Assembly: GCA_025934955.1 (NCBI GenBank)
Contig: JAICWE010000011.1
Location: 1-64,000 of the forward strand
Source of the DNA: Gemmatimonadales bacterium
GTDB taxonomy: Bacteria; Gemmatimonadota; Gemmatimonadetes; Gemmatimonadales; GWC2-71-9
Direction: 5' to 3'
DNA: 64,000 nucleotides
The first letter of the stretch is position 1, and each line of letters starts with the position of its first letter. This document shows, one piece after another, positions 47,894 through 56,303 of the stretch. The notes beneath the pieces are model-generated. The model was not told the origin of the DNA. It ran no database searches and saw nothing but the letters and a program-made list of their open reading frames with translations. The position numbers were made by a program, and so were the translations under genes.

Positions 47894-48115
47894 ATGGGCT
47901 ACGACGAGATCGTCTCCATGCTCGGCTACGCCGGCGGTCACGAGCGGCAGGTCCGCATCACCACGACCAATCGCCTCGAGGTGGTCGGGGTTCCGACCAG
48001 CGTCGATACCCACCCGACGGCTCACGAGGTCTATCTCCGCCCCGCCGGCCAGGACGACACCGAGATCGCGGTCTCGCTCGCCGCGATCTCGGCCGTCGAG
48101 CTGCTCGGCGAGTAG
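47894..48115 (+). CDS. small hypothetical protein (73 aa)
   Basis: ATG with GGGAGGG Shine-Dalgarno; soluble. Confidence 0.5.
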   Translation: MGYDEIVSMLGYAGGHERQVRITTTNRLEVVGVPTSVDTHPTAHEVYLRPAGQDDTEIAVSLAAISAVELLGE

Positions 48116-48201: not shown

Positions 48202-48459
48202 ATGTCGCCGTTTCTGGTTCCGATCACCGCGTTCATCATGATTGGCCTGGTCGTGCTCGCCCGCTCGCCCATCGGGCTCGCCCTCGCCGAGCGCCTCCGC
48301 GGCCACGGCGCCGACCTCGGCCTCGTGCAGCAGCAGCTCGACGAAATGCACGGTACCCTCGAGGCGATCCGGGCCGAGCTGGCGGAAACCCAGGAGCGGG
48401 TTGACTTCGCGGAGCGCCTGTTGAGTCAGAAGCCCGACGCCGCGAAGCTCGAGGGTTGA
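48202..48459 (+). CDS. PspB-like small membrane protein, paralog 1
   Basis: N-terminal TM; C-terminal ETQERVDFAERLLSQKP. Confidence 0.65.
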   Translation: MSPFLVPITAFIMIGLVVLARSPIGLALAERLRGHGADLGLVQQQLDEMHGTLEAIRAELAETQERVDFAERLLSQKPDAAKLEG

Positions 48460-48462
48460 GGC

Positions 48463-48717
48463 GTGAACTACGACGCAATCGTCGAGTTCCCGTTGGGCCT
48501 TGTCGCCGTGGCAGGCATCGGGACCGCGATCTACGTCGGGTTCCGGCTCGCGATGGTGTTGGTCCGCCGGCTGGAGCAGCGGGTGCCCGAGCCGGGCGCC
48601 GGCGCCGGGGACCTGGTGCTGCTCCGGCAGGAGATCGCGGAGCTGCACGAGCGGGTGGACTTCACCGAGCGGATGTTGGCGCAGCGGCCGGAGCCGGCGC
48701 GCGTGGAGGGCATGTGA
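48463..48717 (+). CDS. PspB-like small membrane protein, paralog 2
   Basis: N-terminal TM; C-terminal ELHERVDFTERMLAQRP; GTG start. Confidence 0.65.
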   Translation: MNYDAIVEFPLGLVAVAGIGTAIYVGFRLAMVLVRRLEQRVPEPGAGAGDLVLLRQEIAELHERVDFTERMLAQRPEPARVEGM

Positions 48718-49001
48718 ATCCCGAGGACATCGCGCCGCTGACCGCGTTTCTGATCGCCTGCGCGACGCTGGTGCTGGTACTGCTCGGGCCGGTCGGCCGG
48801 GCGCTGGGGCGCTGGGTAGATCGCTGGGGTCGCCATGCGGATACTGAAGCCGACGCACGGCTCGCCGAACTTGAGGCGCGCCTCGCCGAGCTCGAATCCT
48901 CGCACGTGCGGAGTGCCGAGCTGGAAGAGCGGCTCGAGTTCGCCGAGCGCCTGCTGGCGCAGCAGCGGAGCCCGGCGCAGCTGAGCGAAGGAAACCGCTG
49001 A
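48714..49001 (+). CDS. PspB-like small membrane protein, paralog 3
   Basis: GTG start overlapping previous stop (GTGA); TM; C-terminal ELEERLEFAERLLAQQR. Confidence 0.65.
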   Translation: MNPEDIAPLTAFLIACATLVLVLLGPVGRALGRWVDRWGRHADTEADARLAELEARLAELESSHVRSAELEERLEFAERLLAQQRSPAQLSEGNR

Positions 49002-49369
49002 TGCCACTGCTGCTGCTCGCGCAGATACCGGCGCCGCCGGCGCCGCCACTGCCGCCGGAGATCGGGCGGATGATCTTCCAGACGCCGCCACCGTGGGTGA
49101 CCATGCCGCCGACCGCGATCGTACTGATCACGCTCGGGGTGTTTGCGGCGTGCGCGGTCGTGCTGTATCCGGTTTTCCGGGCTATCGCGCGGCGCATCGA
49201 GGGGAAGGCGGCCGACGCGGAGCTGAGGGCGGAGCTCGAGGAGCTCCGCAACCGGGTCCAGGAGCTGGAGTCGAGTCAGCTGCACGTGGCGGAGCTGGAG
49301 GAGCGGGTGGACTTCGCCGAGCGCCTGCTGAGCCAGCAGCGGGCGCCCGAGCGGCTGCCTAACGGCTGA
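49001..49369 (+). CDS. PspB-like small membrane protein, paralog 4 (Pro-rich N terminus)
   Basis: TGATG junction; TM; C-terminal ELEERVDFAERLLSQQR. Confidence 0.65.
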   Translation: MPLLLLAQIPAPPAPPLPPEIGRMIFQTPPPWVTMPPTAIVLITLGVFAACAVVLYPVFRAIARRIEGKAADAELRAELEELRNRVQELESSQLHVAELEERVDFAERLLSQQRAPERLPNG

Positions 49370-49379
49370 GGAGGTTTCG

Positions 49380-49730
49380 ATGCAGAGCGGCAAGGAATCC
49401 GGCTTCTGGGTGGCCACCACGTTCATCGGCATGGCGGTGATCGGCGCATTCGTCGCACTGTCGGTGGTCATCGGCGAAGACTTCGCGGTGCCGGCGATCA
49501 TCACCCTCGGCATCGTCGCGGCCATACTGGGCCGGGGCGACGTGGGGCGCGCGCTCGCCCGGCGGATCGAGCACGGGCCGGCCGGCGCCGCGGACGGCGA
49601 GACCCAGGCCGAGCTGGACGACATGCGCGGCCGGGTGGCGGAGCTGGAGGAGCGCGTGGATTTCGCCGAGCGGCTGCTCAGCCGCCAGCGCGAGACGGCG
49701 CAGCTTCCGGGCGACGGAGACCTGCGCTGA
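49380..49730 (+). CDS. PspB-like small membrane protein, paralog 5 (probably two TM)
   Basis: Two hydrophobic segments; C-terminal ELEERVDFAERLLSRQR. Confidence 0.65.
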   Translation: MQSGKESGFWVATTFIGMAVIGAFVALSVVIGEDFAVPAIITLGIVAAILGRGDVGRALARRIEHGPAGAADGETQAELDDMRGRVAELEERVDFAERLLSRQRETAQLPGDGDLR

Positions 49731-49794
49731 GCATCGGAGCGGGCCACGGTTGGCGGAGTTCGAGGAACGGTTAGATTTGGCCGGGGACCCACAC

Positions 49795-50190
49795 ATGATC
49801 ACGCACGACGACCTGCAGTCATTCCTCGACCGCCTCGACGGCGGCTCGGTCACGTCCACCGAGCTGGAGTCGGGTCTCTGGCTCTCGCGCAACGCCGACG
49901 GAGCGGAGGTGGTGGTGCACTACGCGCCGCCGGTCGTCATCCTGCGCGTGCGGGTGATGGAGCTTCCGGCGGGCGAGCCGCGCCAGGGCGAGCTGTTCCG
50001 CCAGCTGCTCGAGTTCAACGCCCGTGACCTCGTCCACGGCTCCTACGGCCTCGAGGGCGACCACGTCGTCCTGACCGACACGCTGGAGCTCGAGAACCTC
50101 GACTACAACGAGTTCGAGTCGAGCTTCGACTCCATCTCGCTCGCGCTGGCCTCGCACCTGTCCGCGCTCGCGGCCTACCGGGAGAGCTGA
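49795..50190 (+). CDS. YbjN/CesT-like small acidic protein
   Basis: 131-aa ORF between paralog array and pspA; fold assignment tentative. Confidence 0.45.
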   Translation: MITHDDLQSFLDRLDGGSVTSTELESGLWLSRNADGAEVVVHYAPPVVILRVRVMELPAGEPRQGELFRQLLEFNARDLVHGSYGLEGDHVVLTDTLELENLDYNEFESSFDSISLALASHLSALAAYRES

Positions 50191-50195
50191 CCCGC

Positions 50196-50969
50196 ATGGG
50201 AATCTTCGATCGTCTGTCCACGATGTTGCGGTCGAACATCAACGACCTCATCACCCGGGCCGAAAATCCCGAGAAGATGCTCAACCAGTTGATCCTCGAC
50301 ATGAAGGGTCAGCTGGCCAAGGCCAAGCAGCAGGTCGCGAGCGCCATCGCCGACGAGAAGAAGCTCGAGGCCGACGCCGCCGGCATGAAGAAGCAGGCGG
50401 AGGACTGGGAGCGGCGCGCCATGCTCGCGGTGCAGGAGGGCCGTGACGACCTCGCCAAGCAGGCGCTGGGCCGCTACAACGAGCAGCTCCAGGGTGCGCA
50501 GCAGCTCCAGGAGACGTGGCTCAAGCACAAGGCCGAGACCGAGAACCTCAAGGCCTCGCTGCGCCAGCTCAACGACAAGATCGAAGAGGCCAAGCGGAAG
50601 AAGAACATCCTGGTCGCCCGGGCCAAACGGGCGGAGGCGCAGCAGCGCATCCAGGAGACGATGTCGGGGATGAGCGACAAGAGCGCCTTCGAGTCGTTCG
50701 AGCGCATGGCGGACAAGATCGAGCAGACCGAGCGGCGCGCCATCGCTGCGGCGGAGCTCAACGAGGAAGTCTCCGGCGACGCGCTGGCGCGCCAGTTCGA
50801 CGCGCTGGAGTACAAGGGCAGCTCTGACCAGCAGCTGCTGGAGCTCAAGGCCAAGATGGGCCTCATCGGGGCCGGCGGCGGTGCGGCGGCCAAGCGGCTG
50901 GGCCGCGGCGACGACCAGGTCCACGACGCCGAGCTCGTGGAGGAAGGGGACGAGGGGACCAAGCGCTGA
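50196..50969 (+). CDS. pspA: PspA/IM30 family protein
   Basis: MGIFDRLSTMLRSNINDLITRAENPEKMLNQLILDMKGQLAKAKQQVA, long coiled coil. Confidence 0.92.
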   Translation: MGIFDRLSTMLRSNINDLITRAENPEKMLNQLILDMKGQLAKAKQQVASAIADEKKLEADAAGMKKQAEDWERRAMLAVQEGRDDLAKQALGRYNEQLQGAQQLQETWLKHKAETENLKASLRQLNDKIEEAKRKKNILVARAKRAEAQQRIQETMSGMSDKSAFESFERMADKIEQTERRAIAAAELNEEVSGDALARQFDALEYKGSSDQQLLELKAKMGLIGAGGGAAAKRLGRGDDQVHDAELVEEGDEGTKR

Positions 50970-52090
50970 TGCCGCCGGCGGCGCCGGCCGAGCGGCGGGG
51001 CTTCTCCCTCGGCTGGACCATACTCGCCGTCGCACTCATCGCCCTGCTGCTCCGGACGGTTGACGTCCTGCTGCTGCTGCTCGTCGCCTCCATCATCGCC
51101 GTCTATCTCAACGCCGTCGCGCGGGCCTTTGCCCGGTTCGGCCTGCCGCGCGACGGCGGCATCGCGGCGGCGGCGGTCCTCTCGCTCGGCATTCTCGCCA
51201 CCGTCGGGGTGCTCATCGCGCCGCCGCTGGTGGACCAGGTCCAGGGACTCGCCGCCAACCTGCCGCAGTACCTCGCCGATCTCGACCGCAACATCGCCGC
51301 GCTCGTCGCCCGCGTGCCGCTGCTCCACCACGGTCCGGTGCCGACGTCGAGCAGTCTCCTCTCCAGCACCTTCACCGAGATCATCGCGTTCGTCCGCGGA
51401 GCGGCGCTGCCGTATCTCAAGGGCGGCTTCGAGGTGCTGGTGGACGTGGTGAGCGTCGCGGTGATGTCCATCTATCTCGTCCGGCATCCGGGGATCTACG
51501 CCGGCGGCGCCGTGGCGCTGGTGCCGCCGCGCCGGCGCCGGCTCGCGGGCGCCATCCTGCACGATCTCGGCACCGCACTCCGCGCCTGGGTCATCGGCCA
51601 GATCCTGGACATGTTCATCCTCGGCGCGCTCACGACGCTCGGGCTCTGGGCGCTGGGGGTCCCGTACTTCCTCGCCTTCGGCACCTTCGCGGGCGTGGCT
51701 GCCATCGTGCCCTTCTTCGGCGTACTCTTCTCCACGCTCCTGCCGGCGCTGTTCGCCCTCGGCACGCTGGGTGTGGTGAAGGCGCTGCTGGTCGCGGCGC
51801 TCGGCGTCGTGGTCCATCTGATCGAGGCCAACTTCGTCGCACCGATGGTCATGGAGCGCCAAGTCAACGTGCCGCCGGTGCTCACGATCCTCGGCGTGCT
51901 CCTGGTCGGCAAGCTGTTCGGCCTCGTCGGCCTCATCGTGTCGGTGCCGATCCTGGTGCTCGCGATGGTGCTGGTGCGGCACATCCTGCTGGGCGAGATC
52001 TACGGCGATCCGGTGAGCGAGCTCAAGCCCGGCGGCACGGTGCCCGAGGAGCACGTGCGCACGGTCGCTACTCCACACTCCACCACCTGA
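50969..52090 (+). CDS. AI-2E family (UPF0118/TqsA-like) permease
   Basis: Multi-TM; SIIAVYLNAV, VIGQILDMFILGALTTLGLWALGVPYFLAFGTFAGVAAIVPFFG, LIEANFVAPMVMERQVNVPPVLTILGVLLVGKLFGLVG. Confidence 0.88.
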   Translation: MPPAAPAERRGFSLGWTILAVALIALLLRTVDVLLLLLVASIIAVYLNAVARAFARFGLPRDGGIAAAAVLSLGILATVGVLIAPPLVDQVQGLAANLPQYLADLDRNIAALVARVPLLHHGPVPTSSSLLSSTFTEIIAFVRGAALPYLKGGFEVLVDVVSVAVMSIYLVRHPGIYAGGAVALVPPRRRRLAGAILHDLGTALRAWVIGQILDMFILGALTTLGLWALGVPYFLAFGTFAGVAAIVPFFGVLFSTLLPALFALGTLGVVKALLVAALGVVVHLIEANFVAPMVMERQVNVPPVLTILGVLLVGKLFGLVGLIVSVPILVLAMVLVRHILLGEIYGDPVSELKPGGTVPEEHVRTVATPHSTT

Positions 52091-52093
52091 CCG

Positions 52094-53203
52094 ATGCCAG
52101 AGCTGCGCTACCTGATCCTCGCCGACGGCGACTTCGGCCCGATGACGTCGAAGACCGCCAACTCCCTCATCCGCTACCGCGCCGACCGCGTCGTCGCGGT
52201 GCTCGACCGCAGCCAGGCCGGCCGTACCGCGCAGGAAGTGCTCGGCTTCGGCGGGGGGATTCCGGTCGTCGGCTCGATGCGCGAGGGGCTGGCGCTCGGC
52301 CCGACGGCGGTGCTCATCGGCATCGCGCCGATGGGCGGGCGGCTGCCGGCCGAGTGGCGTGGGTGGCTGCTGGAGGCCCTCGACGCCGGCTGCGAGCTGT
52401 GGAGCGGCCTGCATACCTTTCTCGCCGACGATCCCGCGCTTGCGGAGGCGGCGCGGCGGACCGGCCGCGCGATTCACGACCTCAGGCGTCCGCCCGCCAA
52501 CATTCCCGTCGCGTCGGGGCTGGCCAAGCAGGTCGACCCGTTCGTGGTGCTCACGGTCGGCACCGACTGCAACGTCGGCAAGATGACGGCGCAGCTTCAG
52601 CTCACCGGCGGCCTCAATGCCCGCGGGCTGCGGACCCGCTTCGTCGCGACCGGCCAGACCGGCATCATGATCGAGGGCTGGGGCACGGCGGTGGATGCGG
52701 TCGTCGCCGACTTCCTCGCCGGCGCGGCGGAGCAGCTCGTGCTGCAGGGCGCGAAGGACGCCGACGTCGTGCTGGTCGAGGGGCAGGGCAGCATCAACCA
52801 TCCCGGCTACTCCGGCGTGACGCTCGGCCTGCTGCACGGGAGCTGCCCCGACGCGCTGATCCTCTGCCACCAGCCGACGCGGGAGTTCATCGGCGACTAC
52901 CGCGAGGCGAGCTGGCTCCGGCTGCCGCCGCTCGGTGAGTACGTGCGGCTCTACGAGCAGATCGGCTCCGCGGTGCACCCGACCCGCGTGATCGGCATCT
53001 GCCTCAACACCTACGATCTGAGCGAGGCGGACGCGCGGGCCGCCGGTGAGCGTGCCGCGGCCGAGACCGGGCTGCCGGCGACCGATCCGGTGCGGTTCGA
53101 TCCGGCGCCGCTGCTCGACGCGATCGTCCACGCGCGTGACGCATACCGGCACGCCCGCGCGCCGCGCGGGAGCCGAGCGGCGGCACCGGCGGCGCGCGGA
53201 TAG
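52094..53203 (+). CDS. DUF1611/DgcN family protein
   Basis: VLTVGTDCNVGKMTAQLQL, RTRFVATGQTGIMIEGWGTAVDAVVADFLAGAAE, VEGQGSINHPGYSGVTLGLLHGS. Confidence 0.75.
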   Translation: MPELRYLILADGDFGPMTSKTANSLIRYRADRVVAVLDRSQAGRTAQEVLGFGGGIPVVGSMREGLALGPTAVLIGIAPMGGRLPAEWRGWLLEALDAGCELWSGLHTFLADDPALAEAARRTGRAIHDLRRPPANIPVASGLAKQVDPFVVLTVGTDCNVGKMTAQLQLTGGLNARGLRTRFVATGQTGIMIEGWGTAVDAVVADFLAGAAEQLVLQGAKDADVVLVEGQGSINHPGYSGVTLGLLHGSCPDALILCHQPTREFIGDYREASWLRLPPLGEYVRLYEQIGSAVHPTRVIGICLNTYDLSEADARAAGERAAAETGLPATDPVRFDPAPLLDAIVHARDAYRHARAPRGSRAAAPAARG

Positions 53204-55770: not shown

Positions 55771-55843
55771 GCTGACGTAGCTCAACCGGTAGAGCACCTG
55801 ATTTGTAATCAGGCGGTTAGGGGTTCGATTCCCCTCGTCAGCT
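55771..55843 (+). tRNA. tRNA-Thr (TGT)
   Basis: GCTGACG/CGTCAGC acceptor, loop TTTGTAA, GGTTCGATTCC T-arm. Confidence 0.95.
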
Positions 55844-55922
55844 TCCAGCGTGAGCCGGATGATCGTGACGATGACCGGCGCGATGGTTGTCGCGATGCTC
55901 GGTGACGACAGCAGTGCCCTCG

Positions 55923-55949
55923 GACCCCGCGTCCTTCTCGCGCGGGGTC
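55923..55949 (+). terminator. terminator-like hairpin inside the tRNA cluster
   Basis: GACCCCGCG-N9-CGCGGGGTC, followed by TTGC (weak U-tract). Confidence 0.35.
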
Positions 55950-56006
55950 TTGCATCACGGGGCGTCGCGGAGTGCGCCGTAGCGGGCAGGTAGTGCGGCA
56001 GGACTC

Positions 56007-56090
56007 GGTGGGGTGGCCGAGTGGCTAATGGCAGCAGACTGTAAATCTGCCGGGCTCTGCCCTACGTAGGTTCGAATCCTACCCCCACCA
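56007..56090 (+). tRNA. tRNA-Tyr (GTA)
   Basis: GGTGGGG/CCCCACC acceptor, anticodon loop CTGTAAA, long variable arm. Confidence 0.95.
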
Positions 56091-56102
56091 CTGCGGGTGC
56101 CG

Positions 56103-56138
56103 GACGCGGGTGCAGCTCAGGACGCGGGTGTAGCTCAG
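56103..56138 (+). repeat. 18-bp tandem duplication covering the tRNA-Gly 5' end
   Basis: GACGCGGGTGCAGCTCAG / GACGCGGGTGTAGCTCAG, one mismatch. Confidence 0.9.
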
Positions 56139-56196
56139 TTGGTAGAGCATCAGCCTTCCAAGCTGAGGGTCGCGGGTTCGAGCCCCGTCGCCCGCT
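56124..56196 (+). tRNA. tRNA-Gly (TCC)
   Basis: GCGGGTG/CGCCCGC acceptor, loop CTTCCAA. Confidence 0.95.
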
Positions 56197-56230
56197 TCGA
56201 AGTGTCGCTCGCGATGTCGCTGGAGATGTC

Positions 56231-56303
<73 letters not shown>

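What the first reader, a model, noticed from the sequence alone, without database searches (positions are those of the whole stretch)
48202..49730. Tandem array of five paralogous small membrane proteins sharing an ELEERVDFAERLLxQQR tail
Seen directly: five consecutive short ORFs (85, 84, 95, 122 and 116 aa), each with an N-terminal hydrophobic segment, and near-identical C-terminal blocks ETQERVDFAERLLSQKP, ELHERVDFTERMLAQRP, ELEERLEFAERLLAQQR, ELEERVDFAERLLSQQR and ELEERVDFAERLLSRQR. The N-termini and TM segments are otherwise divergent, so the tail is the conserved functional element. Junctions are tight (GTGA, TGATG). The tail resembles the amphipathic PspB segment (E. coli RMRERIQALESILD), and the array ends just ahead of a PspA gene. 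Inference: a multi-subunit PspB-like membrane-stress sensor in which different TM domains share one PspA- or regulator-binding helix.
Basis: partly seen in the sequence, partly recalled or inferred. Interest (0 to 1): 0.82.

Follow-up and report, generated by a model that had tools for sequence, protein, structure and literature searches.

The report
PspB-like membrane protein array beside pspA
This bacterium (phylum Gemmatimonadota) carries five small membrane proteins in a row that share one almost identical inner tail, next to the gene of the membrane-repair protein PspA; close relatives carry similar rows of up to eleven, which suggests a previously undescribed, multi-part version of a known membrane-stress system.

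Summary
Five tandem ORFs (48202-49730) encode bitopic membrane proteins with a shared tail, followed by a CesT/Tir-like gene and the genome's only detected pspA. The array is not local: 1-11 tail genes lie directly upstream of pspA in 35 of 36 genomes of the same family and one sister family (contig ends excluded), and in 0 of 13 of a second family. The genes are packed (median gap 3 bp), under purifying selection (dN/dS 0.04-0.41) and keep their order: 201 of 213 members are most like a gene in another genome, at a similar array position (r = 0.76; largest of 2,000 shuffles 0.27). Two elements are conserved: a juxtamembrane PxGxAxAxRI motif and the tail AELEERxDFAERLL. AlphaFold gives one 77-residue helix. 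PspB is the nearest known family (top NCBIfam match, 13/84, best 8.7e-7), but no member passes PspB cut-offs and pattern-preserving shuffles explain part of the score. PspC is missing from 33 of 37 genomes. The tail also sits on TM2, zinc-ribbon and two-TM proteins. Most likely: PspB-like membrane anchors that recruit or gate PspA through the tail. That link rests on synteny and probable homology, not on a binding test.

The parts
48202..48459 (+). array member 1 (85 aa): one TM helix, juxtamembrane SPIGLALAERL, tail AETQERVDFAERLLSQ at 48382-48429
   Evidence: ORF; family profile 4.2e-36 (the profile was built from the five)
48463..48717 (+). array member 2 (84 aa, GTG start), tail AELHERVDFTERMLAQ at 48637-48684
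48714..49001 (+). array member 3 (95 aa, GTG start inside the stop of member 2), tail AELEERLEFAERLLAQ at 48915-48962
49001..49369 (+). array member 4 (122 aa, TGATG overlap), tail AELEERVDFAERLLSQ at 49289-49336; nearest of the five to NCBIfam PspB (TIGR02976 2.2e-4, 21.5 bits, cut-off 51.7)
   Evidence: AlphaFold model
49380..49730 (+). array member 5 (116 aa), tail AELEERVDFAERLLSR at 49638-49685
49795..50190 (+). CesT/Tir-like (YbjN superfamily) chaperone-like protein, partner gene of pspA
   Evidence: PF22550 6.5e-28
50196..50969 (+). pspA (PspA/IM30 family, 257 aa), only copy found in the genome
   Evidence: PF04012 3e-48; own-genome search
50969..52090 (+). AI-2E family transporter-like membrane protein, often next after pspA
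   Evidence: PF01594 7.2e-50; synteny
52094..53203 (+). DUF1611 protein, syntenic neighbour
   Evidence: PF07755 1.2e-73
47894..48115 (+). 73-aa ORF of unknown function, syntenic upstream neighbour of many arrays
   Evidence: no significant Pfam or NCBIfam match

Best explanation
The five genes encode PspB-like bitopic inner-membrane proteins (short N-terminus outside, one TM helix, basic juxtamembrane collar, long cytoplasmic helix) that work as a set with PspA and, where present, the CesT/Tir-like protein. The shared C-terminal helix AELEERxDFAERLL is a common docking and oligomerisation segment. It most likely brings the single PspA to the membrane or switches its assembly there, while the different TM segments let each member partner with different membrane components or signals. 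Because PspC is missing in almost all these genomes, the array would fill the PspBC role alone. Shown: genes, packing, conservation, order, synteny with pspA, helix architecture (predicted), PspB as nearest family. Inferred: topology, oligomerisation, PspA binding, sensing.
For: Array directly upstream of pspA in 35/36 usable genomes of two families, 1-11 copies. Median gap 3 bp, 74 of 173 junctions overlap. In 15 of those 35 arrays no CesT gene intervenes, so the steady partner is pspA, not CesT. dN/dS 0.04-0.41. Members keep order across genomes. Invariant F and R with 95-97% D, E, R in the tail, more specific than a generic coiled coil needs. One TM segment in 181 of 213, net charge +2 after and -1 before it: C-terminus inside by the positive-inside rule. 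One continuous 77-residue helix, mean pLDDT 88.8. PspB is the most-matched NCBIfam family, 13/84 members, best 8.7e-7; PspC also appears (2 members). A protein of a related genome (L145/L218) passes Pfam PspB's cut-off (27.2 vs 25.6 bits) and the array profile (2.8e-12) over the same residues. E. coli PspB is found by the array profile at 19 bits, E 0.0012, with 1 of 2,000 pattern-preserving shuffles as good. PspC absent over cut-off in own genome and 33 of 37 genomes of its family. In Yersinia and E. coli, PspB self-associates and PspA joins PspBC on induction (PMC3068692, PMC5596341).
Against: No array member scanned passes Pfam or NCBIfam PspB cut-offs. Pattern-preserving shuffles score nearly as well against a small PspB model (mean 2.5 vs 4.4 bits; some shuffles reach 20), and Aeromonas PspB does not stand out (268 of 2,000 shuffles as good). 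Family f2 keeps pspA, mostly with CesT, without any array, so PspA there needs no such anchors; tail proteins there lie elsewhere. Known PspA binding in Yersinia is by the PspC C-terminus, not PspB (PMC5596341). Adjacency is not binding.
Confidence: 0.5

Rival explanations
1. The tail is only an oligomerisation helix: members form homo- or hetero-oligomeric bundles (a mixed stalk complex) whose job is structural or sensory, and the link to PspA is regulatory co-expression rather than binding.
For: Best co-linear PDB match over TM plus tail is KcsA, whose C-terminal tetrameric helix reads ALHERFDRLERMLDDNR (E 0.017), followed by NavAb-type channels with C-terminal helical bundles (E about 0.5). 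AlphaFold gives one long lone helix, as expected of a subunit of a bundle. Tail proteins occur far from pspA across the phylum.
Against: The PDB match is borderline. Invariance of F and R and of D/E/R at 95-97% exceeds what coiled coils need. The strict neighbourhood with pspA remains to be explained.
Confidence: 0.27
2. The tail is the client segment of the CesT/Tir-like chaperone encoded between array and pspA; the chaperone escorts the small membrane proteins or loads them on PspA.
For: CesT/Tir-like gene sits between array and pspA in 20 of 35 arrays; CesT/Tir-PspA dyads are known and proposed to act as assembly chaperones (PMC11237479).
Against: 15 of 35 arrays, with the same tail, have no CesT gene there (a very divergent one could be missed, but last member and pspA often leave no room). 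f2 has CesT-pspA without arrays.
Confidence: 0.1
3. The array is a Gemmatimonadota sensor family for a different partner (a kinase or other regulator); operon sharing with pspA is one of several outputs.
For: Tail proteins in 121 of 151 genomes, up to 17-20 per genome, on TM2, zinc-ribbon and two-TM domains and not next to pspA in most families. E. coli PspB binds the kinase ArcB (PMC2764110).
Against: No regulator gene was seen to recur with the array in the loci read, but only named neighbours were searched for and regulators need not be linked.
Confidence: 0.13

Closest known systems
PspB (Pfam PF06667, NCBIfam TIGR02976), E. coli/Yersinia Psp system
   Same: Small bitopic protein, N-terminal TM, cytoplasmic amphipathic helix with a similar ER..hE..L pattern, gene beside pspA; nearest family by profile.
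   Different: Upstream of pspA rather than downstream, 1-11 paralogues instead of one (occasionally two), conserved PxGxAxAxRI collar and DFxERLL tail not in the E. coli and Aeromonas PspB read here, no PspC in most genomes, no PspF over cut-off.
CesT/Tir-PspA dyad operons (Ravi et al. 2024, PMC11237479)
   Same: CesT/Tir-like gene immediately before pspA, as in the window.
   Different: That paper's main text does not mention Gemmatimonadota, AI-2E or DUF1611 neighbours, or a small-membrane-protein array (supplements not read).
PspB duplicates and PspC-PspB fusions (Ravi et al. 2024)
   Same: More than one PspB-type segment per operon has been seen.
   Different: Those are duplicates in classical pspFABC operons; here up to 11 ordered paralogues without PspC.
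KcsA C-terminal tetrameric helix
   Same: TM helix running into a cytoplasmic helix with ER.D..ER.L.
   Different: Array proteins are too short to hold a pore and selectivity filter; borderline similarity; probably convergent.

Membership tests
PspB | Match over the curated PspB model cut-off | tested here: not met
   No member over Pfam or NCBIfam cut-off; best 8.7e-7, 13/84 at E<=0.01. One non-array relative (L145) passes Pfam's cut-off.
PspB | N-terminal TM followed by cytoplasmic alpha-helix | tested here: met
   181/213 one TM, positive collar after it; one continuous helix in AlphaFold. Prediction only.
PspB | Encoded with pspA | tested here: met
   35/36 genomes in two families; not in family f2.
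PspB | Encoded and working with PspC | tested here: not met
   PspC over cut-off absent in own genome and 33 of 37 family genomes.
PspB | Sequence relationship beyond shared TM/amphipathic pattern | tested here: inconclusive
   E. coli PspB 1/2000, bridge 2/2000, but Aeromonas PspB 268/2000 shuffles as good; hhalign probability 70%, E 4e-5 in a single-pair comparison.
PspB | Self-association and participation in PspA signalling | not testable with these tools
   Needs two-hybrid or co-purification.
PspA/IM30 | Full-length match of the gene at 50196 to PspA_IM30 | tested here: met
   3e-48, residues 2-220.
CesT/Tir-like | Profile match of the gene at 49795 | tested here: met
   PF22550 97.7 bits, cut-off 27.
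Classical pspFABC operon | PspF with sigma-54 promoter | tested here: not met
   Best PspF match 301 bits, cut-off 443.55, on another contig; no sigma-54 consensus near the array.

The most novel reading that the evidence does not exclude
A PspC-independent Psp system in Gemmatimonadota in which one phylum-specific docking helix (DFxERLL), carried by many membrane proteins per genome with different TM, TM2 or zinc-ribbon domains, recruits a single PspA to many membrane sites or signals, with an ancient ordered array of PspB-like subunits at its core.
Probability: 0.35. Interest if true: 0.8.

Novelty: new variant of a known kind. Interest (0 to 1): 0.6.

Why it matters
PspB was reported as rare outside proteobacteria (PMC11237479), and the two phyletic surveys read here do not mention Gemmatimonadota in their main text. 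An ordered array of up to eleven PspB-like paralogues beside pspA, with no PspC, would be a distinct solution to how the ESCRT-III-like PspA is told where the membrane is damaged. It gives a direct test of whether PspB-type helices bind PspA themselves, and a natural series of sequence variants for mapping that interface.

Tried and rejected
Spurious ORFs: rejected (dN/dS, codon pattern, phylum-wide conservation). Recent local tandem duplication: rejected as the main process, since 201/213 members are closer to a gene in another genome, still 197/213 when foreign hits over 60% identity are ignored. Canonical PspB membership: not met by cut-offs. The 13/84 PspB matches as proof of homology: weakened by class-preserving shuffles. 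CesT as the tail's partner: weakened by 15 CesT-free arrays. Led nowhere: Foldseek against PDB (no match), PspB in viral contigs, array member in plasmids, sigma-54 site, full texts of two Yersinia PspBC papers (not held). A tail-like stretch in front of CesT occurs in the window only.

Full report
OBSERVATION. Searches show five consecutive plus-strand ORFs: 48202-48459, 48463-48717, 48714-49001, 49001-49369, 49380-49730 (85, 84, 95, 122, 116 aa). Members 2 and 3 share GTGA, members 3 and 4 share TGATG. All five end in the quoted tail. GC by codon position (for example 0.76/0.41/0.88 for member 1) matches the neighbouring genes. What follows is a CesT/Tir-like gene (49795-50190), pspA (50196-50969), an AI-2E-type transporter and a DUF1611 gene, so the array is one gene away from pspA, not directly ahead of it.

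DISTRIBUTION. A profile of the five finds 9 copies in the own genome at E<=0.01 (five in the array, four on other contigs) and relatives in 57 of 61 related genomes. Across 151 genomes of the phylum, 121 have a match at 1e-5. Genomes of the window's family (f1) carry several to about 20 copies; f2 and other orders mostly 1-5 or none. A scan of one genome per species over GTDB with the tail pattern returned 79 loci, nearly all labelled Gemmatimonadota; two labelled Chloroflexi and one Acidobacteria may be misbinned.

SYNTENY. The order prolyl-peptidase-like gene, 73-aa ORF, tail genes, CesT, pspA, AI-2E, DUF1611, with some genes dropping out, recurs in many contigs. Counted per genome: of 36 genomes of families f1 and f3 with pspA and sequence upstream of it, 35 have tail genes immediately upstream (1-11; low counts partly due to contig ends); the exception is G021. 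Two more f1 genomes were set aside because the contig ends at pspA. None of 13 f2 genomes has them; in most of those, CesT-pspA follows serine-dehydratase-like genes. In 15 of the 35 arrays no CesT gene lies between array and pspA. Median gap between array genes is 3 bp and 74 of 173 junctions overlap, so translational coupling is likely.

EVOLUTION. Among 213 array members, 201 have their best BLASTP hit in another genome. The relative array position of a gene and of its best foreign hit correlate at r = 0.76, against a largest value of 0.27 in 2,000 within-array shuffles; r is 0.65 when foreign hits over 60% identity are ignored and 0.36 when those over 50% are. First genes match first genes in 37 of 45 cases and last match last in 35 of 45. 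The array is therefore mostly an old, ordered set of paralogues. The tree has few columns and weak support and is used only as illustration. dN/dS of the closest orthologous pairs is 0.04-0.41.

ANATOMY. In 84 aligned members F and R of DFxER are invariant, the other E, R, D, E of the motif are at 95-97%, and a second block P-[VLI]-G-[RK]-A-x-A-x-R-I-x-G follows the TM helix. One TM segment is predicted in 181 of 213; the 15 residues after it carry a mean net charge of +2, those before it -1, which points to a cytoplasmic C-terminus (inference by the positive-inside rule). AlphaFold2 for member 4 with 84 sequences gives one helix, residues 37-113, mean pLDDT 88.8, pTM 0.42; Foldseek finds nothing in the PDB. 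By sequence the best co-linear PDB match is KcsA including its C-terminal tetrameric helix (E 0.017), a hint that the tail can form bundles.

RELATION TO PspB. Of 18,950 NCBIfam models the most-matched is TIGR02976 PspB (13 of 84 members at E<=0.01, best 8.7e-7); PspC TIGR02978 also appears (2 members). No PspB match reaches its cut-off (30.8 bits is the best seen for any relative, cut-off 51.7) and Pfam PspB matches no array member at E<=0.01. The array profile finds E. coli PspB among 22,565 ORFs at 19 bits, E 0.0012. A protein in relative G016 (L145/L218) matches the array profile (2.8e-12) and passes Pfam PspB (27.2 bits, cut-off 25.6) over the same residues. Controls temper this: with shuffles that preserve residue class at every position, real members score 1.9 bits above their shuffles on average and some shuffles reach 20 bits. 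E. coli PspB (1/2000) and the bridge (2/2000) stand out, Aeromonas PspB does not (268/2000). I call the family PspB-like: probably homologous, not formally a member.

PARTNERS. One pspA was found in the own genome (assembly 88% complete). PspC is not found there and passes its cut-off in only 4 of 37 genomes of the family. No PspF over cut-off and no sigma-54 consensus near the array. Outside the array the tail is attached to a TM2 domain (own genome, PF05154 6.5e-18), a zinc-ribbon membrane protein (L120, L121) and a two-TM MTFK protein: it is a reusable module.

MECHANISM. In E. coli PspB self-associates and contacts PspC through the membrane part (PMC3068692) and binds ArcB (PMC2764110); in Yersinia PspBC form a membrane complex that PspA joins on induction, with the PspC C-terminus binding PspA (PMC5596341). 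With PspC missing, the simplest reading is that the array supplies both membrane anchor and PspA-docking helix, and that diversity lies in the TM parts. The step from gene neighbourhood to binding is inferred. The main rival is a pure oligomerisation tail.

LITERATURE. Ravi et al. 2024 (PMC11237479) state that PspB is rare outside proteobacteria, report PspB duplicates, PspC-PspB fusions and CesT/Tir-PspA dyads, and do not mention Gemmatimonadota in the main text. The phyletic survey PMC9239133 likewise does not. A search for Gemmatimonadota with phage shock protein returned none, and the one for Gemmatimonadetes listed no relevant paper. Supplements and subscription papers were not searched, so novelty is provisional.

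Noticed in passing
window 49750-49785: Between member 5 and the CesT gene an in-frame stretch reads AEFEERLDLAG, a tail-like remnant; with the TTG start at 49750 it would be an N-terminal extension of CesT. It was seen in no other CesT ORF read.
   Followed up: partly
G000:C108, L123 15798-16370: A TM2-domain protein (PF05154) ends in the same tail (AELHERMDFTERLLAQ), so the tail is joined to an unrelated membrane domain in the window's own genome.
   Followed up: yes
L120 5665-6168 and L121 5668-6171: Zinc-ribbon membrane proteins end in the same tail.
   Followed up: partly
L218 2352-2654 (G016:C43): Protein that passes Pfam PspB and also carries the DFTERLL tail; it lies after a serine/threonine-kinase-like ORF, not in a psp operon.
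   Followed up: partly
L092 5214-6587, L123 7135-8121: Second recurring context of tail genes: a two-TM protein starting MTFKxxxWxPIAIVLSVIN, in L092 together with two short tail proteins; function unknown.
   Followed up: no
window 47894-48115: 73-aa ORF without any significant family match, kept upstream of many arrays.
   Followed up: no
window 55771-56303: Cluster of four tRNA genes on the plus strand.
   Followed up: no
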